Shown here in pieces: positions 12,299 to 28,051 of a stretch of DNA of 32,477 nt; positions within the stretch are counted from its first letter, which is position 1; the number at the start of each line of letters is the position of its first letter. A program made the position numbers and the translations under genes. Origin of the DNA: Clostridia bacterium (GTDB lineage: Bacteria; Bacillota; Clostridia; Christensenellales; Aristaeellaceae); NCBI GenBank assembly GCA_017410455.1, contig JAFQQT010000071.1, forward strand, positions 1-32,477, in the 5' to 3' direction. The notes beneath the pieces are model-generated. The model made no database searches and was not told where the DNA came from. It was given only the letters and a program-made list of their open reading frames with translations.

Positions 12299-12347
12299 AT
12301 CCATGTCTGCCTGTGGCAGAACAATACATACATGGGAGGATACTACC

Positions 12348-14210
12348 ATGAAGCGTATCATCGCCCTGCTGGTCGTCCTGTGCATGATGCTGAGCATCGT
12401 GCCCGCGATGGCCGAGACCGTGACCGGCACCGGCACCGCCAAGGGCTTTGGCGGCGATGTGACCGTCACCGTGACCCTGGAAGGCGGCGTTATCACCGTC
12501 ATGACCGCCGAGGGCGCCAATGAGACCCCCGGCATCGGCACCCCCGCGCTGGAGTCCATCCCCGCCGCGATGGTGGCCGGCAACACCGTGAATGTGGACG
12601 TCATGTCCGGCGCCACCTTCACCTCTAACGGCGTGATCGAGGCCGCCAAGGCTGCCCTGACCGCCGCTGGCGTGAATCCCGACGACTACATGGCTGCTGC
12701 TGCCGCCGAGGTGGCTGAGGACGCCGTGTACGACGCGGACGTCGTCATCGTTGGCGCTGGCGGCGCCGGCATGACCGCTGCCCTGACCGCCTCCGAGTAC
12801 GGCGCGAAGGTCATCGTGGTCGAGTCCCAGGCTGTGGTGGGCGGCAACTCCGTGCGCGCCACCGGCGGCATGAACGCCGGCGACACCCCCTACCAGGACA
12901 ACGCTGAGTTCGCTCAGGCCGCTGGCGTGGAGAAGACCCTGGCCGGCATCAACGCCTACGCCGACAACGAGGTCATCGTTGCCCTGGCGGAGGAAGTCAC
13001 CTTCCAGTGGGCTGCCTACCAGCAGAACCCGGTGGGCTACTTTGACACCGTCGAGCTGATGCAGCTGGACACCATGATCGGCGGCAAGGGCATCAACAAC
13101 CCCGCCCTGGTCGAGGTGCTGGCTGAGAACTCCGCCGAGGGCGTGGAGTGGCTGCGCAAGTACAACATCAACCTGGAGAACACCGGCGCCTTCGGCGGCG
13201 CGTCCGTCAACCGCATCCACTGGCCCAAGGTGGACGGCAAGAAGACCAACGTCGGCTCCTACATGATCCCCCTGCTGGAGGAAGCCTGCAAGGCCGATGA
13301 GGACATCACCATCCTGCTGGAGACCACTGCCACCGCCATCACCATGGTGGACGGCAAGGCCGCTGGCATCGTCTGCACCGGCAAGAACGGCGAGACCGTC
13401 ACCATCAACGCCGGCGCTGTCATCCTGGCCACCGGCGGCTTCGGCGCCAACCTGGAGATGGTCGCCGAGCTCAAGCCCGAGCTGGAAGGCTTCATGACCA
13501 CCAATGCCCCCGGCCTGCAGGGCCAGGGTATCGCCATGGCGCAGGCCGTGGGCGCCAACGTGGTTGACATGAACCAGATCCAGATCCACCCCACCGTTCA
13601 GGCTGACACCGCCGCCCTGATCACCGAGGGCCTGCGCGGCGACGGCGCGATCCTGGTCAACGCTGAGGGCCTGCGCTTCATCGACGAAGTCGGCACCCGC
13701 GACGTGGTCTCCGCTGCTGAGATCGCCCAGACCGGCTCCTACTCCTGGCTGATCGTGGACGACGCGATGCTGCAGGCTTCCGCCACCATCCAGGGCTATG
13801 TGAAGAAGGGCTTCGTCTTCACCGGCGCCACCTACGAGGAGCTGGCCACCGCCATCGGCGTGGATCCCACCACCTTCGCTGCCACCATGAACACCTGGAA
13901 CGGCTATGTGGCTGACAAGAACGACCCCGACTTCGGCCGCGTGTCCTTCGCCAACCCCCTCGATACCGCTCCCTACTACGCCATCAAGGTGACCGCTGGC
14001 ATCCATCACACCATGGGCGGCGTTGAGATCAACACCCAGACCCAGGTCATCGACGTCAACGGCAACGTGATCCCCGGCCTGTACGCGGCTGGCGAGGTCA
14101 CCGGCGGCGTCCACGGTGCGAACCGTCTGGGCGGAAACGCCGTGTCCGACTTCGTGGTCTTCGGCCGCATCGCCGGCCAGGAAGCCGCGGAGCTCGCTCT
14201 GGCTGACTGA
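12348..14210 (+). CDS. Secreted FMN/FAD-dependent reductase (fumarate/urocanate reductase type)
   Basis: A 620-residue protein. Residues 1-22 form a Sec signal ending AMA|E. Residues 23-110 are an FMN-binding domain with DVMSGAT (84-90), whose Thr90 is the expected site of covalent FMN attachment by ApbE. A FAD_binding_2 domain follows, with GAGGAG at 136-141. Residues that hold the dicarboxylate in flavocytochrome c fumarate reductases have counterparts here: His414 in IQIHPT, Arg430 in LRGDGA, His553 in IHHTMGG and Arg593 in GANRLGG. It should reduce an alkene-type acceptor such as fumarate, urocanate or a cinnamate outside the membrane; the real acceptor is unknown. GGGAGGA sets the start. 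There is no heme motif and no lipobox. Confidence 0.92.
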   Translation: MKRIIALLVVLCMMLSIVPAMAETVTGTGTAKGFGGDVTVTVTLEGGVITVMTAEGANETPGIGTPALESIPAAMVAGNTVNVDVMSGATFTSNGVIEAAKAALTAAGVNPDDYMAAAAAEVAEDAVYDADVVIVGAGGAGMTAALTASEYGAKVIVVESQAVVGGNSVRATGGMNAGDTPYQDNAEFAQAAGVEKTLAGINAYADNEVIVALAEEVTFQWAAYQQNPVGYFDTVELMQLDTMIGGKGINNPALVEVLAENSAEGVEWLRKYNINLENTGAFGGASVNRIHWPKVDGKKTNVGSYMIPLLEEACKADEDITILLETTATAITMVDGKAAGIVCTGKNGETVTINAGAVILATGGFGANLEMVAELKPELEGFMTTNAPGLQGQGIAMAQAVGANVVDMNQIQIHPTVQADTAALITEGLRGDGAILVNAEGLRFIDEVGTRDVVSAAEIAQTGSYSWLIVDDAMLQASATIQGYVKKGFVFTGATYEELATAIGVDPTTFAATMNTWNGYVADKNDPDFGRVSFANPLDTAPYYAIKVTAGIHHTMGGVEINTQTQVIDVNGNVIPGLYAAGEVTGGVHGANRLGGNAVSDFVVFGRIAGQEAAELALAD

Positions 14211-14220
14211 TTTCCCTTCG

Positions 14221-14246
14221 GGGCCTCTTCCTTCGGGAGGAGGCCC
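14221..14246 (+). terminator. Reductase gene terminator hairpin, first (split) copy
   Basis: GGGCCTCTTCC and GGAGGAGGCCC pair around a TTCG tetraloop directly after the reductase stop codon. The expected T-run does not follow; element copy A begins at the next base, and the T-run is found after the second copy of the hairpin. Confidence 0.75.
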
Positions 14247-14434
14247 TCAAAGCATCGACAAAGTCGATGGTTTGCAGACCTTCAAAAAGTCTGCAAGCCA
14301 AGGCGGCAAAGATGCAAATCCGGGAGTTTACTTCGCGGTAAATGACCGGATTTGCAGCTGCAGCCAACGCAGGAAGCATCATTTCCGGCATCCCTGCCGG
14401 AAATGATGCGGTTGCGGGCTTTTTTGATGGTCTG
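14247..14434 (+). mobile_element. Terminator-nested structured element, copy A
   Basis: This 188-base non-coding element is about 95% identical to the stretch at 27824-28012. Its ends form imperfect terminal inverted repeats: TCAAAGCATCGACAAAG against TCAGACCATCAAAAAAG, 13 of 17 matching (the last base of the 3' end is G here, A in copy B). It folds into four hairpins: CATCGAC/GTCGATG (14253-14269), TTGCAGAC/GTCTGCAA (14272-14296), GCAAATCCGG/CCGGATTTGC (14314-14355) and a perfect 15-bp stem at 14376-14409 followed by six T (14420-14425). It is flanked on both sides by copies of the host terminator hairpin. It encodes no plausible protein. It could be a miniature mobile element, a mobile structured RNA, or both. 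Confidence 0.75.
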
Positions 14435-14467
14435 GGGTCCTCTTCCTTCGGGAGGAGGCCCTTTTTG
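14435..14467 (+). terminator. Reductase gene terminator hairpin, second copy with T-run
   Basis: The hairpin repeats the one at 14221-14246 with a single inserted T in its left arm, and is followed by TTTTTGTTTT. It looks like the original terminator tail, now downstream of the inserted element. Confidence 0.75.
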
Positions 14468-14492
14468 TTTTGCGGAATGCAGGCCCGCAGCT

Positions 14493-15098
14493 TCAGGCAG
14501 ACGGCTGCTCCTCCCGGGCCCACTTCAGGAATGTCTTGTGCGAAACGCCCAGCTCGCGGGCGGCCTGCCTCGCCGAGATGGCATGGTTCCGCCACGCCTG
14601 CAGGCATACGGCGAAATTGCCGGGCTTTGGCTTCGGCTTCGGCCCGAAGATCACGCCCCGGGCCCTGGCCGCCGCGATGCCCTCAGCCTGGCGGGTGCGG
14701 ATGTACTCGCGTTCCGTCTGCGCCACGTAGGACAGGAGCTGCAGCACGATGTCGGCAATCAGCGTGCTGGTCAGGTCCCGCCCCTCCCGGGTGTCCAGCA
14801 GGGGCATGTCCAGCACGACGATCGCCGCGCCGATCTCCTTGGTGATGATCCGCCATTGCCGGAGGATCTCATCATAGTTCCTTTCCAGGCGGTCGATGCT
14901 CTTGACGACCAGCACGTCCTTCGCCTTCAGCCGGTGCAGCAGCTTCGTGTAAACGGGGCGGTTGAAGTCCTTCCCGGACTGTTTCTCGACATGGATGTGC
15001 CTTGCATCGATCCCGAATTCGGCCATCGCGCGGATCTGTCTGGCCTCATTCTGGTCCTTGCTGGATACCCTGACATAGCCGTACATGTTACCCGACAT
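14493..15098 (-). CDS. Small serine site-specific recombinase (resolvase/invertase)
   Basis: A 201-residue recombinase. The N-terminal catalytic domain has YVRVSSKDQNEARQ with Arg10 and the catalytic Ser12, and the IDRLERNYDEI segment of the active-site helix. After a KPKPKP linker comes a C-terminal helix-turn-helix (SARQAARELGVSHKTFLKWARE) that binds the recombination site. Such enzymes cut both strands of paired sites through phosphoserine links to resolve cointegrates or invert DNA. The start follows AGGAGGG. The gene lies 26 bases from the terminator that encloses element copy A and has a long dyad just upstream of its start. No transposase is nearby. Confidence 0.92.
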   Translation of the reverse strand: MSGNMYGYVRVSSKDQNEARQIRAMAEFGIDARHIHVEKQSGKDFNRPVYTKLLHRLKAKDVLVVKSIDRLERNYDEILRQWRIITKEIGAAIVVLDMPLLDTREGRDLTSTLIADIVLQLLSYVAQTEREYIRTRQAEGIAAARARGVIFGPKPKPKPGNFAVCLQAWRNHAISARQAARELGVSHKTFLKWAREEQPSA

Positions 15099-19466: not shown

Positions 19467-20672
19467 TTATTCGCCCCAGTCCAGCGTCATGTACCACGGC
19501 TCGGTGCCATACCTATCGCAGGAGATATAGCGCACCTCGCCTGTGGCGGCATTCCATGCGAACATGGTGACATCGTGCCAGCGGTACCGCTCGGACATCT
19601 CAAAGGGAACGCACAGCTCCTCTGCCACGGCCAGGTACGCGAAGTCCCCGTGAGAACCCCGGATGTACCCCGCTTCGTTCGCCATCAGCGCCTCCACCCG
19701 GGCGACTTCCGCCGCCAGTTCCTCCGCACTCAGCTGCCAGGCGGCATACAGGTCGTACTTTCCATCGTAGTTGTTGTAGTAGTGATACGTCACTTCCGTG
19801 GCCAGCTGCTGATACGCGCCCTCCTGCCAGGTGTAGGTCATCGTATGGGGTTCATCCGGGAACAGCTCCCAGGCCAGCTGCGGCATCCAGAAGCTCCTGT
19901 CCGTCTGCAGGTAATGTGCCGGATTATCCGTGGTGGACTCATAAAGCGTGAAGCCGAAGCCGAAGCAGCTCAGGATCAGCGACACCGGCATGTACAGCAC
20001 GCACAGCACCACCACCATCACCCGCGTCGCCGTCCGCACGGGCTTGAAGCGGAAGCGGTCGACCAGCTTCACTACGCCGATGGCGATGGTCGGCAGCAGC
20101 ACAGGGACGATGAGCCACGGCAGCACGCGGAGGAAGTCGCCATACTGCAGGAACTTCATGTCGAAGGCCGTCCAGATGACGATTGACAGCACCATCGCCA
20201 CCGGCAGCAGCATCACGACCCACTCCGGCGTGGCCTTCAGCCAGCTGACGAGCCGCTCCTTCCAGTCGGTCATCCGGTCCGTCTTCGGCACCTCCACCTC
20301 CCTCACCGGCTCAACGAGCGCCTCCGCCAGTTCGGCCACGGTATACGCCTTCTCCGCCTCCAGCCGGGCGAGGGCGTCGAGGTTTTCGCCCTCCTGCCGG
20401 ACGGTCTCCTCCTTGCGCGCCCGCACCTCCGCGACAATGGCGACGCTCTCCTGCGGGTCGGTCAGAATCCGCCGGATCTCCTCCACCGTGAAGCCGAACT
20501 TGCGCAGCGTGGCCACGTGGTTCAGGGCGGCCACGTCGCTGTCGCTGAAATCGTAGGCGCGGCGACCCATGTAGTTCTCCGTATACGACGGGGACAGCAG
20601 CCCTTCCTCGATGTAGTAGCGGATCGCCCGGTCGGTCAGGCCGGTGGCCTCGCAGACCTGCTTGATCTTCAC
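19467..20672 (-). CDS. Membrane-anchored MerR regulator with outer C-terminal domain (copy 1)
   Basis: A 401-residue protein. Residues 1-70 form the MerR DNA-binding winged helix (MKIKQVCEATGLTDRAIRYY). Residues about 72-122 form the coiled-coil dimerisation helix. Three hydrophobic helices follow (about 151-170, 182-203 and 216-240). The last 160 residues, rich in Tyr and Trp and ending YMTLDWGE, lie beyond an odd number of helices and so should be outside the cell. This predicts a one-component system in which an external domain controls DNA binding. It overlaps the upstream paralogue by four bases (ATGA) and was probably formed by tandem duplication. No target or ligand is visible. Confidence 0.85.
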   Translation of the reverse strand: MKIKQVCEATGLTDRAIRYYIEEGLLSPSYTENYMGRRAYDFSDSDVAALNHVATLRKFGFTVEEIRRILTDPQESVAIVAEVRARKEETVRQEGENLDALARLEAEKAYTVAELAEALVEPVREVEVPKTDRMTDWKERLVSWLKATPEWVVMLLPVAMVLSIVIWTAFDMKFLQYGDFLRVLPWLIVPVLLPTIAIGVVKLVDRFRFKPVRTATRVMVVVLCVLYMPVSLILSCFGFGFTLYESTTDNPAHYLQTDRSFWMPQLAWELFPDEPHTMTYTWQEGAYQQLATEVTYHYYNNYDGKYDLYAAWQLSAEELAAEVARVEALMANEAGYIRGSHGDFAYLAVAEELCVPFEMSERYRWHDVTMFAWNAATGEVRYISCDRYGTEPWYMTLDWGE

Positions 20673-21931
20673 TGCGCTGCCTCCTCTCCCCAGTCGAGGG
20701 TCATGTAGTAGGACGACTCCGGATCCCAGCTCTCGTTGGCCGGGTAGGTGTAGTAGTTGAACATGTACCGCACGCGCCCGGTCTCCTCGTTCCAGGCAAA
20801 CATCGCCATCGTGGCATAGGAGTCGTACAGATGCTCAAAGGGCCGCTCACCGATCCAGAAGGCAATGCAGGTGTAGTCGCCCTGCTCGATCGTCTCCAGC
20901 ACGCCCTGCCCCTCCTGCGCATGCGCCCGGGTCAGGAGCGCCTCCACCCGCTGACGCTCTGCCGCCAGCTCATCCGGGGTCAGCGTCCACTCGGCGAACA
21001 CCTCGTAGCTCGGCTCCAGACGGCAGGCGTAGCGATAGAAATACCGCGGCTGCGTGCTCTGCTCCTCGAAGCCCTTCTCCCCCAGCACGTAAGCCGTCGT
21101 GTGCGGCTGAGCCGGGAACAGGCCGTACACCAGCTCCTCGTACCGCGCGTCGCATCCCCGGTCGACCTTCAGGTAGTGCCGGACGTCCTCGGTGATGGAA
21201 TAGTACGGGTTCGTGATATGCGACGAGATCTGAAGCAGCACGCTCACCGGCAGGTACAGCGCGCACAGGATCACCAGCGCCCATTTGAGTCCCCTGAGCT
21301 TCCCCCGGCGGAACCAGAGGAACCACGCAGGCAGCAGCACCAGCGTCGGCACGAGCGAGAGCACCATAAGAATCAGGTATTCCTTCAATTCACATGTCGC
21401 AAATCTGGGGTAGCGGAAGAAATACGGGATCGACAGGTTGAGCGTCAGCACCAGAAGCAGGGGAATCAGCGCAATGATCCACACCGCGCCGTTCCGCAGG
21501 AACCCCTGCGCCGCCTCGCGCCATGTAATGTGCCTGTCCTCCTTCGGCACCTCCACCTCCCTCACCGGCTCAACGAGCGCCTCCGCCAGTTCGGCCACGG
21601 TATACGCTTTCTCCGCCTCCAGCCGGGCGAGGGCGTCGAGGTTTTCGCCCTCCTGCCGGACGGTCTCCTCCTTGCGCGCCCGCACCTCCGCGACAATGGC
21701 GACGCTCTCCTGCGGGTCGGCAAGGATCCGCCGGATCTCCTCTACCGTGAAGCCGAACTTGCGCAGCGTGGCCACGTGGTTCAGGGCGGCCACGTCGTTT
21801 TCTGCAAAGTCGTAGGCGCGGCGGCCCATGTAGTTCTCCGTGTAGGCGGGGGACACGAGGCCCTCCTCGATGTAGTAGCGGATCGCCCGGTCGGTCAGGC
21901 CGGTCAGTTCGCAGACCTGTTTGATCTTCAT
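20669..21931 (-). CDS. Membrane-anchored MerR regulator with outer C-terminal domain (copy 2)
   Basis: A 420-residue paralogue of the downstream gene with the same order: MerR winged helix, coiled coil, three hydrophobic helices (around VWIIALIPLLLVLTLNL, LILMVLSLVPTLVLLPAWFL and WALVILCALYLPVSVLL) and a C-terminal outer domain that also ends YMTLDWGE. The N-terminal 130 residues are nearly identical to copy 1, while the membrane and outer parts have diverged. The two proteins may therefore heterodimerise or bind the same operators while sensing different signals. AGGAGG precedes the start. It is first in the two-gene operon. Confidence 0.85.
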   Translation of the reverse strand: MKIKQVCELTGLTDRAIRYYIEEGLVSPAYTENYMGRRAYDFAENDVAALNHVATLRKFGFTVEEIRRILADPQESVAIVAEVRARKEETVRQEGENLDALARLEAEKAYTVAELAEALVEPVREVEVPKEDRHITWREAAQGFLRNGAVWIIALIPLLLVLTLNLSIPYFFRYPRFATCELKEYLILMVLSLVPTLVLLPAWFLWFRRGKLRGLKWALVILCALYLPVSVLLQISSHITNPYYSITEDVRHYLKVDRGCDARYEELVYGLFPAQPHTTAYVLGEKGFEEQSTQPRYFYRYACRLEPSYEVFAEWTLTPDELAAERQRVEALLTRAHAQEGQGVLETIEQGDYTCIAFWIGERPFEHLYDSYATMAMFAWNEETGRVRYMFNYYTYPANESWDPESSYYMTLDWGEEAAQ

Positions 21932-22401: not shown

Positions 22402-25107
22402 TCAGTCGATCATCGCCTGCACCGCCGCCCAGGCCAGGTCAACAGCTTTTTGATGCTTGGTGGCGTAGGGGCCGATGGCGGTCACCTGCGCCATGGTGCG
22501 CGGGAAGTGCAGGCAGCTGTGGCCGGCAAAGTTGTTGTCGGTGATGTGCTGCACTTCATGGGGCACGGAGTGAGTGGTGGCGATGCGGATGGTGCCATCG
22601 GCGAAGATGACCCACACGGCCTTGGGCGTCCAATCCTGGTAGCCGCAGGCCTGGTACATCTTCTCGGTGTCCGCAGCGGTCAGGGGCTCAATCTCCGCAT
22701 GCTTGCCGTAGGAGAACATGTGCACCTGCCAGCTGATGCCCGTGTCCGGATCGTACAGCGTGCAGTAGGGGTACTTGCGGCAGGCGGCGCGCACGGTGGA
22801 GTACCAGTACTCGTACACGACGTTCTCCGGGATGACCTGCACGGTGGTGCCCAGGCTGACGCTGGCGCCGGGCTTCACGGTGACGCTGGGCGCGCTGGCG
22901 GAGGGGCCGGAGGTGCCGCTGTTGCTGATGCCGGCGGTGTTGAGGGCCGCCAGGGTCTGCTTGCCGGCGATGCCGTCCGCATCCAGGGCGTTGGCGCGCT
23001 GGAAGGCCAGCACCGCGCGGTAGGTCTTGGGGCCGAAGTTGCCGTCAGCCGCCCCGTCCAGGTAACCCAGGGCGATCAGCTTCTGCTGCATGGCCTTCAC
23101 GCTGCTGCTCACGTCGCCCTGCTTGAGGGTGGTGGCGGTGTTCAGGGTGATGGTGGATGGAGCCGTGGTGGCCGCCGGGGTGCTGGTGGGCGCGGGGGTG
23201 GCAGCGCTGACGCTGTAGAGGGCCGCCAGGGTCTTGGGACCCGCCACGCCGTCGCGGCTCAGGCCGTTGCGCTTCTGGAAGTTATAGACCGCCTCGGCGG
23301 TGTCCGTGCCGTAGATGCCGTCCGCCGTGCCGCTCAGGTAACCCAGCTTGATCAGCCGCTCCTGCAGCTGGCGCACGTCTTCGCCCTTCATGCCCTTCTT
23401 GAGGGTGGTCAGGGTGTCCACCACGCTGCCGGCCATCTGGCCATTGTCCATAATGGCGGTGGCGGTGTAGAGGACGCTCTGGGTGTCGTATCCGGCCACG
23501 CCGTCCACATCCAGGCCGTTCATGCGCTGGAAGGCGCGGATGGCCGCCACATCGTCCGCCTTGCACACGCCATCCATGGCTGCGCTGTAGTAGCCCAGCT
23601 GGGTCAGGCGCTGCTGCAGGCGGAGCACCGCTGTGCCCGTCACGCCCTGGCGGATGACGACGACGTTCTCCTTCGTCACCGCCTCATAGGTGGGGGTGGG
23701 CGTGGGCTCGGCATAGGGCGTCGCCGTGGGGACGGTGGGTGCCACATAATCCGCCGGGATGGCCAGGTGGCTGAAGAGCACCGCATTGGTGCCGCTGCCG
23801 GCCACGCCGTCCGCCTTCAGCCCGTTCTTGGTCTGGAAGGCCTTGAGCGCCTTGACGCTGGCCGTGCCGAAGGCGCCATCCGCCTTGCCGTCGAGGTAGC
23901 CCAGGTCGATCAGCCGCTGCTGCACCAGCCTGGCGTCCGCGCCACGGCTGCCCTGGCGGACCTTGCCGTCCGGGAGCTCGAAGGTGGGCAGGGGCGTGGG
24001 GGTCGGGGTGGGCGTGGGGGTGGGCGTCGCGCCGGAGGACAGCGCCCCCGTTCCCAGCAGGAGGGCCTGGGTGCTCGCGCCGCACACGCCATCCTGCTTC
24101 AGCCCGTTCGTCTTCTGGAAGGCGCGCACGGCCTTGGTGGTGGCTGTGTCATAAACGCCGCTGATCGTGCCGGTGTAATAGCCCAGCTCCTTCAGGCGGC
24201 TCTGGATGGTGCGCACGAGCATGCCGCGGCTGCCGGAGGAGGCCGTAACCCCCTCGATGGCCGGCAGGGTCTTCACCTCAGTCTTGTCGCCGTCGGCATT
24301 CAGGGGCTTGCCGTTGAAGATGAAGGCCTGCAGGTTCGCATCCGCAATGCCGGTGATGGGGTAGGAGTTCTGCCGCTGGAAGGCCATGACCGCCTGCGCC
24401 GTGGCGCTGCCGTACACGCCGTCCGCCGTGCCCTTGAGGTAGCCCAGCTCAATGAGGGCCTCCTGCAGGGCCATGACCTGATCGCCATCAGAGCCGGACT
24501 GCAGCACCTGGTAGCCGCTGGCGTCCTCCCCGGGAGAAAGGGTGGGGCCCGCGGTGGGCGTGGGGGTACCCTTGACGATGGTCGCCAGGCGCAGATAATC
24601 CTTCTTGCACCAGCCGGTCTGGCCGTCGTAGGTCACCTTGGCCCAGCTGCCGTTGAGGGCCAGCACCGTCACCTTGCCCCCCACGGGGATGGTATCCAGC
24701 TTCTTTGCGGACGTGGAGGCCGTCTTGCGCAGGCTCACCTGCTGGATGCACACGGTATCATAGGGATAACCCGTGGCCGTGAAGGCGGCGCTGTCCGAAC
24801 TGCCGCCGGAAGCCGTGCCGCCCTTGTCCACGTATTTCTTGAATACATAGCCGGTCTGCCCGTCATACTCGATGCGGTAGAAATTTCCCGACGCACCGGT
24901 GACCTGGATCACTTCTCCCTCGGGGACGCGGGCAATCACGTTGCTCTCGTTGGACTTGGGCGTGCGGCGCAGGTTCGTTTCCGCATTGATCGTACCCGTG
25001 AAGGGATAGCTCTCCGCCAGCGCGGTGCACGCCAGAATCGCCACCAGCAACACGGCCAGCAGCATCTGCACGCCCGCGCGACCCTTCATTCGTTCCCATA
25101 AACGCAT
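22402..25107 (-). CDS. Secreted wall-binding protein: 2 SH3, 6 PG-binding repeats, Cys/His domain
   Basis: A 901-residue protein. An N-terminal signal/anchor helix (residues 11-31) precedes two bacterial SH3 domains (about 36-95 and 115-173). Six PG_binding_1 repeats follow, each with an LGY-x6-DG-x-[YF] core, joined by Thr/Pro linkers. The final 140 residues form a separate domain with His850, His854, His863, Cys865 and His867 in PHEVQHITDNNF and GHSCLHFPRT. The layout His-x(12-14)-HxC recalls L,D-transpeptidases, but is not their SHGC motif. I recall this domain at the end of similar Clostridial proteins with GHFCIHF. It may be a wall hydrolase or transpeptidase. GGAGGA supports the start at 25107. 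Confidence 0.88.
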   Translation of the reverse strand: MRLWERMKGRAGVQMLLAVLLVAILACTALAESYPFTGTINAETNLRRTPKSNESNVIARVPEGEVIQVTGASGNFYRIEYDGQTGYVFKKYVDKGGTASGGSSDSAAFTATGYPYDTVCIQQVSLRKTASTSAKKLDTIPVGGKVTVLALNGSWAKVTYDGQTGWCKKDYLRLATIVKGTPTPTAGPTLSPGEDASGYQVLQSGSDGDQVMALQEALIELGYLKGTADGVYGSATAQAVMAFQRQNSYPITGIADANLQAFIFNGKPLNADGDKTEVKTLPAIEGVTASSGSRGMLVRTIQSRLKELGYYTGTISGVYDTATTKAVRAFQKTNGLKQDGVCGASTQALLLGTGALSSGATPTPTPTPTPTPLPTFELPDGKVRQGSRGADARLVQQRLIDLGYLDGKADGAFGTASVKALKAFQTKNGLKADGVAGSGTNAVLFSHLAIPADYVAPTVPTATPYAEPTPTPTYEAVTKENVVVIRQGVTGTAVLRLQQRLTQLGYYSAAMDGVCKADDVAAIRAFQRMNGLDVDGVAGYDTQSVLYTATAIMDNGQMAGSVVDTLTTLKKGMKGEDVRQLQERLIKLGYLSGTADGIYGTDTAEAVYNFQKRNGLSRDGVAGPKTLAALYSVSAATPAPTSTPAATTAPSTITLNTATTLKQGDVSSSVKAMQQKLIALGYLDGAADGNFGPKTYRAVLAFQRANALDADGIAGKQTLAALNTAGISNSGTSGPSASAPSVTVKPGASVSLGTTVQVIPENVVYEYWYSTVRAACRKYPYCTLYDPDTGISWQVHMFSYGKHAEIEPLTAADTEKMYQACGYQDWTPKAVWVIFADGTIRIATTHSVPHEVQHITDNNFAGHSCLHFPRTMAQVTAIGPYATKHQKAVDLAWAAVQAMID

Positions 25108-25251
25108 CGCTGTGTTCCTCCGTCCTGCCCTCCGGCGCGGCCTCCCGCCCCGGAATACAGACATTTTTCCTATCTTATTTTATGTCAGATCACGCCTCCT
25201 GTCAACATGATGATGTAACAATTCCCTTCATATTTCCAGTCCTTTCCCGTT

Positions 25252-25343: not shown

Positions 25344-26867
25344 TCACCCGACCATCGCCAGCAGCATGACCGGCCCGGACAGGAACTCGTACTTTTCCTC
25401 CCCCACATAGGCCTTCACCAGAATGCGGTACTCGCCATCGGGCAGGCGCACACCATCGCCGTCCATGCCGTCCCAGGTGAAGCAGGTGCCCGCGGGGTCA
25501 AGCATCTCCGGGCGGGAAGCCTGGCGCGAGGAGAGGCGGCGCACGGTGCGCCCATCCCCGTCAACGATGGTGACGGAGAGCTCGCAGGGCACGTCATGGC
25601 GCACGATGAACGTCAGCTCCTCGAAGCCGTCGGGGCAGAACGCAGCAGGCGCTTCCACCGACAGGAGGGGATCCCCCGTTTCCGGCGGCACACAGAGCAC
25701 CCGCGAAGACGCCACCGAGGGCACGCCGCGCTCGATGGTCAGCAGCTGCAGCAACACATAGCCGGAATCGCCCGTGGCCTGCCGGTCCACGCCGATGGTG
25801 CGCTGGTGGATGCCGGGGTCCAGCGTACGCCCGGGCAGCGCCCAGGCACCGAAGCGGCCGTTGTTGTCGTAGATGATCTGGGCATTGTCAAAGTCCCAGC
25901 GACCCTGGCGGTGATAGACGATCTGGTAGGCCACCTGCACGCTGCTGACCACGTTGAAGGTGAAGGAAACCGCAGGCTCCTGGGGCAGCAGCACGTCGGA
26001 TTCGAAGCTCACGCCCTCCACCAGCGCCTCCCTGCGGCGGGCGCTGTGCTGCTCCGTGTCGTAGGTGAAGAGGACGAAGTCGCTCTCCTCCGGATAGCTG
26101 CGCACGAGGGACGCACCGTGGGTGTCCAGCAGGCAGCGCTTGAGCTCGGTGAGGGTGATGGCACCATCGCGGTTGTCATCGGCGCAGAAGCCACCCTCCA
26201 CGCTCAGGGCACGCACCAGCGCGTTGGAGAAATACCCCGCGCCCGCCAGCCGCTCGCCGTCGATCTCGCCGGACCAGTACCAGCTCTCCTCCGCGCCGCC
26301 CGAGGAGCACAGCACCACATAATCCGGCCCGGCGAACACGTTCACCAGATGGCCATCAACGCCCTTGCCGATCATCGCGCCGGCGTGGCAGGCGTCCAGA
26401 ATCAGCACCTTCTGGCCGGGGATCTGGTCAAAGAGGGTGCGCAGGGCAACGGCGGTCACGCCCACCTCCCGCACGCCATCGGAAAGCAGCAGCGTCATGC
26501 CGCTGGAGCCCATGCCATCCTGCCACAGGCCGTGGGTGCTGATGTAGAAGATGCTCACATCGTCCTCGTCCGCCCCGTCGAAGGCGTCCAGCACCAGCGC
26601 CGCCAGCTCGCCCATGGAGCCCACGCCGTCGGGCGCCGTCAGCAGCAGATCCAGCCCCAGCGTGCCGCCGCTGAAGGTGGCCGCCATCCGGCTGACATTG
26701 TTGGCCGAAGAGGGCGTGGTGTCCGGCTGGCTCAGGAAGCGGTCGCAGCCCACCAGCAGCGCGCGGTTCACCCGCCCGTCCTCAATTGGCTGCGCTTCCT
26801 CGCCCAGCACGGTAAAGGGCAGGCAGAGCCACGCCAGCAGCAGCGCCAGCAGCCCGCGCATCTTCAT
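25344..26867 (-). CDS. Secreted caspase-like (C14) protease with EF-hand and FlgD-like domain
   Basis: A 507-residue protein with a signal peptide (cleavage near residue 22). Residues about 33-275 form a caspase/metacaspase domain, with the catalytic His112 in FYISTHG and Cys160 in LILDACHAG. Inside the fold lies a perfect EF-hand loop, DDNRDGAITLTE (230-241), with Ca ligands at positions 1, 3, 5 and 12, so calcium activation is likely. The middle is beta-rich, and the C terminus has a FlgD-like Ig motif (CFTWDGMDGDG, then LPDGEYRILVKAY). Bacterial caspase homologues cut after basic or acidic residues; the target here is unknown. The next gene on the strand encodes a wall-binding protein. Confidence 0.9.
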   Translation of the reverse strand: MKMRGLLALLLAWLCLPFTVLGEEAQPIEDGRVNRALLVGCDRFLSQPDTTPSSANNVSRMAATFSGGTLGLDLLLTAPDGVGSMGELAALVLDAFDGADEDDVSIFYISTHGLWQDGMGSSGMTLLLSDGVREVGVTAVALRTLFDQIPGQKVLILDACHAGAMIGKGVDGHLVNVFAGPDYVVLCSSGGAEESWYWSGEIDGERLAGAGYFSNALVRALSVEGGFCADDNRDGAITLTELKRCLLDTHGASLVRSYPEESDFVLFTYDTEQHSARRREALVEGVSFESDVLLPQEPAVSFTFNVVSSVQVAYQIVYHRQGRWDFDNAQIIYDNNGRFGAWALPGRTLDPGIHQRTIGVDRQATGDSGYVLLQLLTIERGVPSVASSRVLCVPPETGDPLLSVEAPAAFCPDGFEELTFIVRHDVPCELSVTIVDGDGRTVRRLSSRQASRPEMLDPAGTCFTWDGMDGDGVRLPDGEYRILVKAYVGEEKYEFLSGPVMLLAMVG

Positions 26868-27068
26868 GGCTCTCCCTCCCCTTCGGTCGTTTACATACGT
26901 TTCAGCATGACATAATTGTACACCTTTTTAGACGCGGCCGCCACCGGAAATGTTCGCATTTCGATGAAAATTCTGCGAAAAATCATGCATTTCTCCCATT
27001 ATATACCTCATTATCCGCGCCGCAACCCAGGGTTTCCCCGGAACAAAGCAGATTCCATCTGGAATGTA
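26868..27068. other. Divergent intergenic region between caspase-like and XRE genes
   Basis: No gene is seen. On the minus strand TTGCGG (27020-27025) and TATAAT (26998-27003) are 16 bases apart within the GAGGTATATAATGGGA motif, giving a probable promoter about 130 bases before the caspase-like gene. A second weaker TACAAT lies closer to it, near 26919. Confidence 0.6.
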
Positions 27069-27097
27069 TGGCCAAAGAGCCGCTTGCGCGCTATAAT
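27069..27097 (+). promoter_or_regulatory. Promoter of the XRE regulator gene
   Basis: TGGCCA (27069-27074) and a perfect TATAAT (27092-27097) with a 17-base spacer lie 35 bases before the start codon. Confidence 0.75.
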
Positions 27098-27131
27098 ATC
27101 CCTGTACGCACCACAAAGGAGGATCGGACCC

Positions 27132-27785
27132 ATGACCATCGAAAGCGCAAATCATCTGGCTGAGCTCCGCCGGGCACACGGCCTGTCGCAGGAGGATCTG
27201 GCCGAGCAGCTGGGCGTGAGCCGGCAGGCCGTATCCAAATGGGAGCGGGCGGAGTCCTCGCCCGACACGGACAACCTGATCGCCCTGGCGCAGCTCTACG
27301 GCGTGACGCTGGATGAGCTGCTGGGGCTGCGGCTGCCCCCGGAAACGCCCGCCCCGGAGACGGCTGCCCCGGAAGCCGCCATCCCGGAGGCAGCTCCCGC
27401 TGAAGCCCCCGACCCGGATGACCCCCTGCCCGAGGGCAGCTATTATGAGCATCTGGCTCAGAAGGCCGCCCGCGAAGCCGAGGAAGCCGCCCGTCAGGCG
27501 GAACAGGAGCGCCACCGCCGTCGCGCGCGCTTCCCCTATCCCCTCTTTGTCACCATCGCCTACCTGGTGCTGGGCATTTACTTCCACATGTGGCACCCGG
27601 GGTGGATCATCTTCCTGACCATTCCGCTGTATTATCTGCCGGAAAGCGAGCGCGCGCCCCTGCGCCTGCTGGGCAATCCGGTGATGGTCACCATCATTTA
27701 CCTGCTGCTGGGCACGATGTGCAACCTGTGGCACCCGGGCTGGCTGATCTTCCTGCTCATCCCGCTGCTCAATGCTTCCCGCTGA
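27132..27785 (+). CDS. XRE-family regulator with C-terminal membrane hairpins
   Basis: A 217-residue protein. Residues 1-65 form the Cro/CI helix-turn-helix (LSQEDLAEQLGVSRQAVSKWERAESSP). A low-complexity Pro/Ala/Glu linker and a charged helix (about 75-135) follow. The C terminus contains two repeats of a membrane hairpin. The first holds TIAYLVLGIYFHMWHPGWIIFLTIP and the second VTIIYLLLGTMCNLWHPGWLIFLLIP; both carry a WHPGW turn. This predicts membrane tethering of a DNA-binding protein through internally duplicated hairpins. GGAGG precedes the ATG at 27132; the frame extends upstream but the promoter lies inside that extension. The target is unknown. Confidence 0.88.
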   Translation: MTIESANHLAELRRAHGLSQEDLAEQLGVSRQAVSKWERAESSPDTDNLIALAQLYGVTLDELLGLRLPPETPAPETAAPEAAIPEAAPAEAPDPDDPLPEGSYYEHLAQKAAREAEEAARQAEQERHRRRARFPYPLFVTIAYLVLGIYFHMWHPGWIIFLTIPLYYLPESERAPLRLLGNPVMVTIIYLLLGTMCNLWHPGWLIFLLIPLLNASR

Positions 27786-27795
27786 AAACGCGAAA

Positions 27796-27823
27796 GGGCC
27801 GGCTGTCGCATGACAGCCGGCCC
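27796..27823 (+). terminator. XRE gene terminator hairpin, first (split) copy
   Basis: A 12-bp stem (GGGCCGGCTGTC/GACAGCCGGCCC, loop GCAT) lies 10 bases after the XRE stop codon. It is followed not by T residues but by element copy B. Confidence 0.75.
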
Positions 27824-28012
27824 TCAAAGCATCGACAAAGTCGATGGTTTGCAGACCTTCAAAAAAGTCTGCAAGACAAGGCGGCAAAGCTGCAAATTCG
27901 GGAGTTTACTTCGCGGTAAATGACCGGATTTGCAGCTGCAGCCAACGCAGGAAGCATCCTTTCCGGCACCCTTGCCGGAAAGGATGCGGTTGCGGGCTTT
28001 TTTGATGGTCTG
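27824..28012 (+). mobile_element. Terminator-nested structured element, copy B
   Basis: This 189-base element differs from copy A (14247-14434) by eight substitutions and one base in an A-run. Two of the substitutions form one compensatory A-T to C-G exchange in the 15-bp stem (GCATCCTTTCCGGCA/TGCCGGAAAGGATGC). The loop of that stem changes freely, from TCCC to CCCT. The third hairpin is longer here (AGCTGCAAATTCGG pairs with CCGGATTTGCAGCT, with one GU). A T-run of seven follows at about 27998-28003. The flanking 32-base direct repeats (27795-27826 and 28013-28044, one mismatch) are copies of the XRE terminator hairpin. Orientation relative to the host terminator is the same as in copy A. 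Confidence 0.75.
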
Positions 28013-28013
28013 A

Positions 28014-28051
28014 GGGCCGGCTGTCGCATGACAGCCGACCCTCACTTTTTT
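28014..28051 (+). terminator. XRE gene terminator hairpin, second copy with T-run
   Basis: This repeats the stem at 27796-27823 with one G-to-A change, and is followed by TCACTTTTTTG. It may also act weakly on transcripts from the lipoprotein gene on the other strand. Confidence 0.75.

What the first reader, a model, noticed from the sequence alone, without database searches (positions are those of the whole stretch)
14221..14467. 189-base element nested inside a duplicated terminator hairpin (copy A)
The reductase terminator stem appears twice, at 14221-14246 and 14435-14461, with element A exactly between the copies and only the second hairpin carrying the T-run. The same arrangement is found at 27795-28051 around an unrelated terminator. 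In each case the flanking repeat is the host terminator itself (26-28 bases here, 32 at the other site), not a sequence shared by the two sites. This is what an insertion that duplicates a whole terminator hairpin would leave. Long, variable, structure-defined target duplications do not fit ordinary DDE transposition, and might fit target-primed copying of an RNA.
Basis: partly seen in the sequence, partly recalled or inferred. Interest (0 to 1): 0.88.

Follow-up and report, generated by a model that had tools for sequence, protein, structure and literature searches.

The report
Mobile DNA that doubles terminator hairpins
A short non-coding jumping element, apparently moved by enzymes of a known transposon family, inserts at the hairpins that end genes and leaves a complete copy of the hairpin on each side, which suggests that the enzyme may choose its target by DNA shape.

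Summary
Copy A is a 187-bp element (14248-14434) between two 28-bp copies of one terminator hairpin; copy B (27825-28012) sits the same way in another hairpin. The genome holds 25 near-full copies and one partial. In 25 of 26 the flanks are locus-specific duplicates scoring above all 650 mismatched flank pairs.

In same-genus genomes lacking the element, one hairpin is seen at four of the loci compared.

The RNA-copying idea is not supported. The ends (CA(A/G)...CTG, imperfect inverted repeats) resemble those of IS1182-family DDE insertion sequences. Of 61 autonomous IS1182 copies with both ends resolved, from several phyla, 47 carry a whole-hairpin duplication (18-34 bp) and 14 carry two different hairpins; the one such copy tested looks like a recombinant. 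Four of four plasmid insertions tested have uninterrupted counterparts with one hairpin, the best 100% identical over 420 nt.

Verdict: a MITE mobilised by IS1182-type transposase, whose target duplication is set by DNA structure. IS1272, the studied family member, deletes its hairpin; in the papers I could search, duplication appears only as a hypothetical pathway. No autonomous partner was found in this assembly.

The parts
14220..14247 (+). left copy of terminator hairpin (target duplication), site A
14248..14434 (+). MITE copy A, 187 bp, ends CAAAGCATCGACAAAG...CTTTTTTGATGGTCTG
14248..14263 (+). left terminal inverted repeat of copy A (resembles IS1182 left ends ...CAAAGTC)
14419..14434 (-). 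right terminal inverted repeat of copy A (CAGACCATCAAAAAAG read inwards)
14435..14462 (+). right copy of terminator hairpin (target duplication), site A; keeps the T-run
14463..14471 (+). T-run of the original terminator, site A
12303..14210 (+). host gene whose terminator was hit: FMN/FAD-binding reductase
   Evidence: FAD_binding_2, FMN_bind
27795..27824 (+). left hairpin copy, site B
27825..28012 (+). MITE copy B, 188 bp
28013..28042 (+). right hairpin copy, site B, followed by CAC and six T
26916..27785 (+). host gene upstream of site B: HTH-domain protein
   Evidence: HTH_3

Best explanation
The 187/188-bp element is a MITE, a non-coding element mobilised in trans by a DDE transposase of the IS1182 family. 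It is one of 25 near-full copies in this genome and belongs to a larger group in the same taxonomic family. Shown: the element has imperfect terminal inverted repeats resembling IS1182 ends; 25 of 26 insertions here are bounded by two copies of a locus-specific hairpin, often with a T-run on the outside; sites without it hold one hairpin where the comparison was clear; autonomous IS1182 copies from several phyla do the same, with duplications of 18-34 bp centred on the palindrome. [quoted passage not shown] Inferred consequence: the copy next to the gene loses its T-run while the distal copy keeps it, so termination survives and insertion is nearly harmless.
For: Copies and flanks: (25 of 26). 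Relatives: 14 of 21 MITE loci examined from other genomes have a hairpin duplication (lowest score 13); 120 control scans at shifted places reach at most 6. Empty sites for the MITE: (8 of 17 regions with one similar hairpin, at four loci; both sides aligned in four regions, mainly one side in the other four); 6 of 6 homologues of the copy-A reductase gene examined in relatives are followed by a hairpin with a T-run and no element core within 600 nt. IS1182 identity of autonomous relatives: NCBIfam NF033551 over cut-off for five complete proteins; D150, D300 and E427 invariant in six transposases, consistent with a DDE triad. Autonomous copies: 61 of 80 loci resolved; 47 of 61 whole-hairpin duplications; 2 of 3660 mismatched pairs reach that score. 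Of 49 perfect duplications 48 are centred on the palindrome. One-hairpin empty sites for 4 of 4 plasmid insertions tested, four records 100% identical over 420 nt. Shared ends: 16-20 of 24 bases with the best IS end; shuffled ends average about 10, maxima 15-18.
Against: No autonomous IS with matching ends was found in this genome: its single IS1182 transposase, on contig 81, has other ends and no hairpin duplication. The genome is 92% complete and in 93 contigs. Apart from the window genome only G068 is in both the MITE list and the IS1182 list. For two of the ten MITE ends compared, the left end of the window element among them (16 of 24), the match only equals the best of 300 shuffles. One of 26 MITE copies lacks the duplication, and for one of 8 plasmid copies no ends were resolved. 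In 14 of 61 IS copies the two hairpins differ; only one (L143) was tested. In 9 of 17 fetched regions the hairpin was not clearly conserved, the place held extra sequence, or the alignment was poor. The one homologue of the site-B gene examined has no hairpin close behind the gene. Cruciform extrusion and strand-transfer positions are not observed.
Confidence: 0.86

Rival explanations
1. Same family and same duplication, but the target is a single-stranded hairpin (for example on the lagging strand or behind RNA polymerase), not a double cruciform; the second strand is handled by replication or repair.
For: The target hairpins are strong (fold energies) and could form in single strands; nothing here shows extrusion from duplex DNA.
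Against: Duplications are symmetric about the palindrome in 48 of 49 cases, which fits equal treatment of both strands; two 3' ends have to be joined to two strands.
Confidence: 0.25
2. Target-primed copying of an RNA: the element is a retroelement that lands at terminators, as group IIC introns do.
For: Element is highly structured as RNA (z -11.1) and sits at terminators; group IIC introns do target terminators (recalled).
Against: Terminal inverted repeats; no Rfam match at gathering score; relatives with similar ends and the same duplications encode DDE transposases.
Confidence: 0.02
3. The hairpins were doubled first (tandem terminators) and the element, or a recombination event, came between them later.
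For: Tandem terminators exist in bacteria (recalled).
Against: Eight regions lacking the element show one hairpin in the alignment; plasmid empty sites match the one-hairpin prediction over the full 420 nt in the best records.
Confidence: 0.02
4. The hairpin travels with the element, like an attachment-site core of a site-specific recombinase.
For: The two copies flank the element exactly.
Against: Hairpins differ between loci (47 distinct sequences in 47 IS copies; for MITEs) and are present at empty sites.
Confidence: 0.01

Closest known systems
IS1272 / TnSha1 (IS1182 family), stem-loop-replacing transposition (PMC5678879, PMC4923244; passages read)
   Same: Same transposase family; targets hairpins, some of them terminators, without sequence consensus.
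   Different: There the hairpin is removed wholly or partly and there is no target duplication; here the whole hairpin is duplicated. PMC5678879 draws whole stem-loop duplication as a possible pathway b (Fig 13 legend).
IS1182-family elements such as ISBspe1 (name seen in the annotation of Alkalihalophilus pseudofirmus plasmid pBpOF4-01)
   Same: IS1182 transposase, CAG...CTG ends, whole-hairpin target duplication (20 bp).
   Different: Autonomous, about 1.5 kb, encodes the transposase; the window element is non-coding and 187 bp.
Bacterial MITEs with terminator-like structure (BOX, RUP, SPRITE; passages of review PMC10969869)
   Same: Short, non-autonomous, structured, intergenic.
   Different: The passages read do not describe duplication of a complete terminator hairpin; the term IS1182 does not occur in that review.
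Group IIC introns (recalled, not read)
   Same: Prefer sites at terminator hairpins.
   Different: Intron RNA with reverse transcriptase; no terminal inverted repeats and no hairpin duplication.

Membership tests
MITE of IS1182 type | Terminal inverted repeats matching those of an IS1182 element | tested here: met
   24-nt ends of five MITE variants share 16-20 bases with the best IS1182 end, shuffles average about 10, maxima 15-18; weakest for the left end of the window element (16, equal to the best shuffle)
MITE of IS1182 type | Same target-duplication type as the autonomous IS | tested here: met
   whole-hairpin duplication in 25 of 26 MITE copies and 47 of 61 resolved IS copies
MITE of IS1182 type | Autonomous partner in the same genome | tested here: not met
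   one IS1182 transposase with different ends; assembly 92% complete
MITE of IS1182 type | No transposase gene inside | tested here: met
   187 bp; the transposases seen are 445-515 aa
MITE of IS1182 type | Mobilised in trans by the transposase | not testable with these tools
   needs an assay
IS1182 family (autonomous relatives) | Transposase over the curated family cut-off | tested here: met
   NF033551, 356-442 bits against cut-off 270 for five complete proteins; the fragment L072 scored 147
IS1272-type stem-loop replacement | Target hairpin removed, no duplication | tested here: not met
   hairpin present twice; empty sites hold one
Group II intron or other RNA-copied element | Intron RNA fold or reverse transcriptase | tested here: not met
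   no Rfam family at gathering score in the window; relatives encode IS1182 transposases; no separate search for a reverse transcriptase was made
IS200/IS605-type single-strand transposition | No terminal inverted repeats and no target duplication (recalled) | tested here: not met
   both are present

The most novel reading that the evidence does not exclude
A widespread clade of DDE transposases, together with the MITEs it mobilises, chooses targets by DNA secondary structure and cuts at the 5' feet of an extruded cruciform, so that the size of the target duplication is read off the hairpin itself. By re-creating an intact terminator on the far side the elements accumulate (25 near-full copies here, perhaps about 90 in one relative) without damaging host transcription.
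Probability: 0.6. Interest if true: 0.7.

Novelty: new variant of a known kind. Interest (0 to 1): 0.58.

Why it matters
Ordinary DDE transposition gives a short, roughly fixed target duplication set by the geometry of the enzyme. Here the duplication varies from about 18 to 39 bp and equals the hairpin. That is strong indirect evidence that a DDE transposase can use extruded hairpins as targets, and it supplies the missing outcome of a model published for IS1272. It would also explain how such elements reach high copy number harmlessly, gives a ready signature for annotating IS1182 insertions and MITEs, and offers a natural record of which hairpins form in cells.

Tried and rejected
Considered and rejected: RNA target-primed copying; pre-existing tandem terminators; a hairpin carried along by a site-specific recombinase (the resolvase-like ORF beside copy A was not pursued); IS200/IS605-type movement. 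The own-genome IS1182 copy on contig 81 was considered as the partner and rejected: its ends are TTGGGTCTGTTGACAAAC-like and no hairpin duplication was found.

Led nowhere: none of the papers listed in nine searches whose passages I read (PMC5678879, PMC4923244, PMC10969869, PMC4438569) reports whole-hairpin duplication by an IS1182 element or MITE; the others I saw only as listings. That ISfinder lists long variable direct repeats for this family is my recollection, not checked; curators may already know of such duplications. The terminator scan found two overlapping matches at site A against 0.9 expected and none at site B, where three bases separate stem and T-run. The abutting-hairpin test was too permissive to weigh much: 61 of 61 IS copies pass on both sides, but so do 240 of 591 control positions. 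The script stopped with an error in its second half; the first half was used and the second half was redone.

Rows dropped before counts: one search used 21 of the 27 loci that one search gave from other genomes (six short weak matches left out). One search used 14 of the 16 joined sites made.

Full report
WHAT IS THERE. At site A a 187-bp element (14248-14434) lies between two 28-bp copies of the terminator hairpin that follows a reductase gene; at site B a 188-bp copy (27825-28012) lies between two 30-bp copies of another terminator-like hairpin. The element starts CAAAGCATCGACAAAG and ends CTTTTTTGATGGTCTG, so both ends read CA(A/G)... inwards and form an imperfect terminal inverted repeat.

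IN THE SAME GENOME. The genome (3.3 Mb, 93 contigs, 92% complete) holds 25 near-full copies, 86-100% identical to copy A, and one partial copy. Each left flank was compared with its own right flank: 25 of 26 score 16-39, above every one of the 650 mismatched flank pairs (maximum 11). Each hairpin is specific to its locus. The exception, L015, lacks the right tip. In contig orientation at least four of the eight bases after the right-hand hairpin are T in 19 of 26 loci, and at least four of the eight before the left-hand hairpin are A in 14 of 26 (no background was computed). These runs lie outside the pair of hairpins; what follows the inner side of each hairpin is the element itself. So for a gene reading towards the element the nearer hairpin loses its T-run and the farther one keeps it.

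IN RELATIVES. A search of 120 genomes found matches in 14, the window genome included; five of the 14 (G005, G012, G024, G037, G119) have only short weak matches, and the tool scored only a few candidates per genome. Of 21 loci examined from other genomes, 14 show the hairpin duplication (scores 13 and up; the same scan at 120 shifted positions reached 6 at most). The other seven lack a resolved end, are fragments or lie at a contig edge. At L056 (G016) two elements stand in tandem with three similar hairpins, before, between and after them. Other genera carry a variant with ends CAGGATGTTGACAAAG / CAGAGCGCTGACAAAG.

EMPTY SITES OF THE MITE. Joined flanks of 14 loci were searched in 18 genomes of the genus, the window genome included, and 17 regions were read. 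Eight show one hairpin of similar sequence and no element: the L008 locus in four genomes (one 90% identical), the L004 locus in two, and L011 and L013 in one each. In four of the eight both sides align (L190, L192, L196, L198); in the other four mainly one side does (L201-L204). The remaining nine: at L016 and L019 the element is absent but the hairpin is not clearly conserved (five regions); at L019 in G010 there is an extra stretch without the element's core; L018 in G010 and regions L205 and L206 align poorly past one side. No region aligned across both sides of copy A or B was recovered. Six homologues of the copy-A reductase gene were examined; each is followed by a hairpin with a T-run and no element core within 600 nt, and in two of them (L164, L165) another palindrome lies further on. 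The one homologue of the site-B gene has no hairpin close behind it.

THE AUTONOMOUS RELATIVES. IS1182-like transposases were found in 12 of 120 genomes at E below 1e-20, the window genome included; the five complete ones tested score over the IS1182 cut-off in NCBIfam. Two of them, L068 and L069, are flanked by perfect whole-hairpin duplications of 25 and 20 bp. Ends were chosen by their inverted repeats and a consensus, not by the duplication. Both ends could be resolved in 61; 12 were cut by a contig edge and 7 were unresolved. Of the 61, 47 have a hairpin duplication of 18-34 bp (median 22), all distinct in sequence; 2 of 3660 mismatched pairs reach the same score. They come from Bacillota, Pseudomonadota and Lentisphaerota, several of them from one multi-copy genome (Mesorhizobium sophorae). 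Among 49 perfect duplications (including L068, L069 and seven plasmid copies) 48 are centred on the palindrome; 40 begin with A and 37 end with T.

THE EXCEPTIONS. The other 14 of 61 have one hairpin on the left and a different one on the right, scattered over the tree (12 of them are in the tree). This is expected if two copies recombine. One was tested: for L143 in Rhizobium metallidurans the left and right flanks were sought in 148 genomes. In the 11 other genomes where both were found they lie on different contigs in 10 and 1.2 Mb apart on one contig in one. The other 13 were not tested.

EXACT EMPTY SITES. Eight plasmid copies were fetched and seven have perfect hairpin duplications of 19-28 bp (no ends resolved in the Vibrio copy L212). 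For four of these seven the joined-flank prediction with one hairpin was searched. B. subtilis: four plasmids identical over all 420 nt and one at 99.5%. B. pumilus: 99.5% and 98.6%. Rhizobium: 97.4%, and 99.8% for the best of 26 records covering at least 80% of the query.

LINK BETWEEN MITE AND IS. Ten ends of five MITE variants were compared with the collected IS ends. Over 24 bases the best matches are 16-20; shuffled ends average about 10 at best, with maxima of 15-18 in 300 shuffles, and for two ends the match only equals that maximum. For the window element the right end matches 17 (L072, from the same taxonomic family, and L068) and the left end 16 (L085, L086). The left end reads ...CAAAGTC like those IS left ends, and the right end ...AAGCCC resembles IS right ends ...AAACCC. 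Invariant D150, D300 and E427 in six transposases fit a DDE triad; the assignment of these residues is mine.

MECHANISM. Shown: whole-hairpin duplication on insertion. Inferred: recognition of an extruded hairpin, joining at the two 5' feet, and gap filling. This is pathway b in the Fig 13 legend of PMC5678879, given there as a possibility; in IS1272 itself the hairpin is removed and there is no duplication (PMC5678879, PMC4923244; passages read). Both papers cite a review as saying that some IS1182 members target palindromes; I have not read that review.

WEAK POINTS. No partner with matching ends is in this assembly, and of the relatives only G068 is in both the MITE list and the IS1182 list. 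Trans-mobilisation and target extrusion are untested. The novelty claim covers only the searched library, and ISfinder was not consulted.

Noticed in passing
window 14376-14410 and alignment A2 columns 130-166: The internal hairpin of the MITE has at least four unrelated stem sequences among 24 copies, nearly all well paired, between nearly invariant flanks, as if whole stems had been exchanged. Unexplained.
   Followed up: partly
G016 C37:27036-27443, in L056 at 1237-1735: Two MITEs in tandem with three similar hairpins before, between and after them, as if a duplicated hairpin had been hit again.
   Followed up: partly
G068: 93 forward and 93 reverse matches to the degenerate end motif against 4 and 5 for the reversed control, suggesting roughly 90 copies in one relative.
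   Followed up: no
window 14493-15098 (-): Protein with a resolvase N-terminal domain and a weak helix-turn-helix match directly beside copy A.
   Followed up: no
window 20274-20573 and 21533-21832: A 300-nt segment 95% identical between two adjacent MerR-type regulator genes, suggesting recent duplication or gene conversion.
   Followed up: no
window 22402-25164 (-): A 920-aa protein with six peptidoglycan-binding stretches and SH3 domains.
   Followed up: no
window 25344-26867 (-): A caspase-like (Peptidase_C14) domain joined to a FlgD-type Ig domain.
   Followed up: no
L062 / G000 contig 81:278-1615: The only IS1182 transposase found in this genome belongs to a distant subgroup with other ends and no hairpin duplication; L064 in G058 groups with it and has an apparent 6-bp duplication.
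   Followed up: partly
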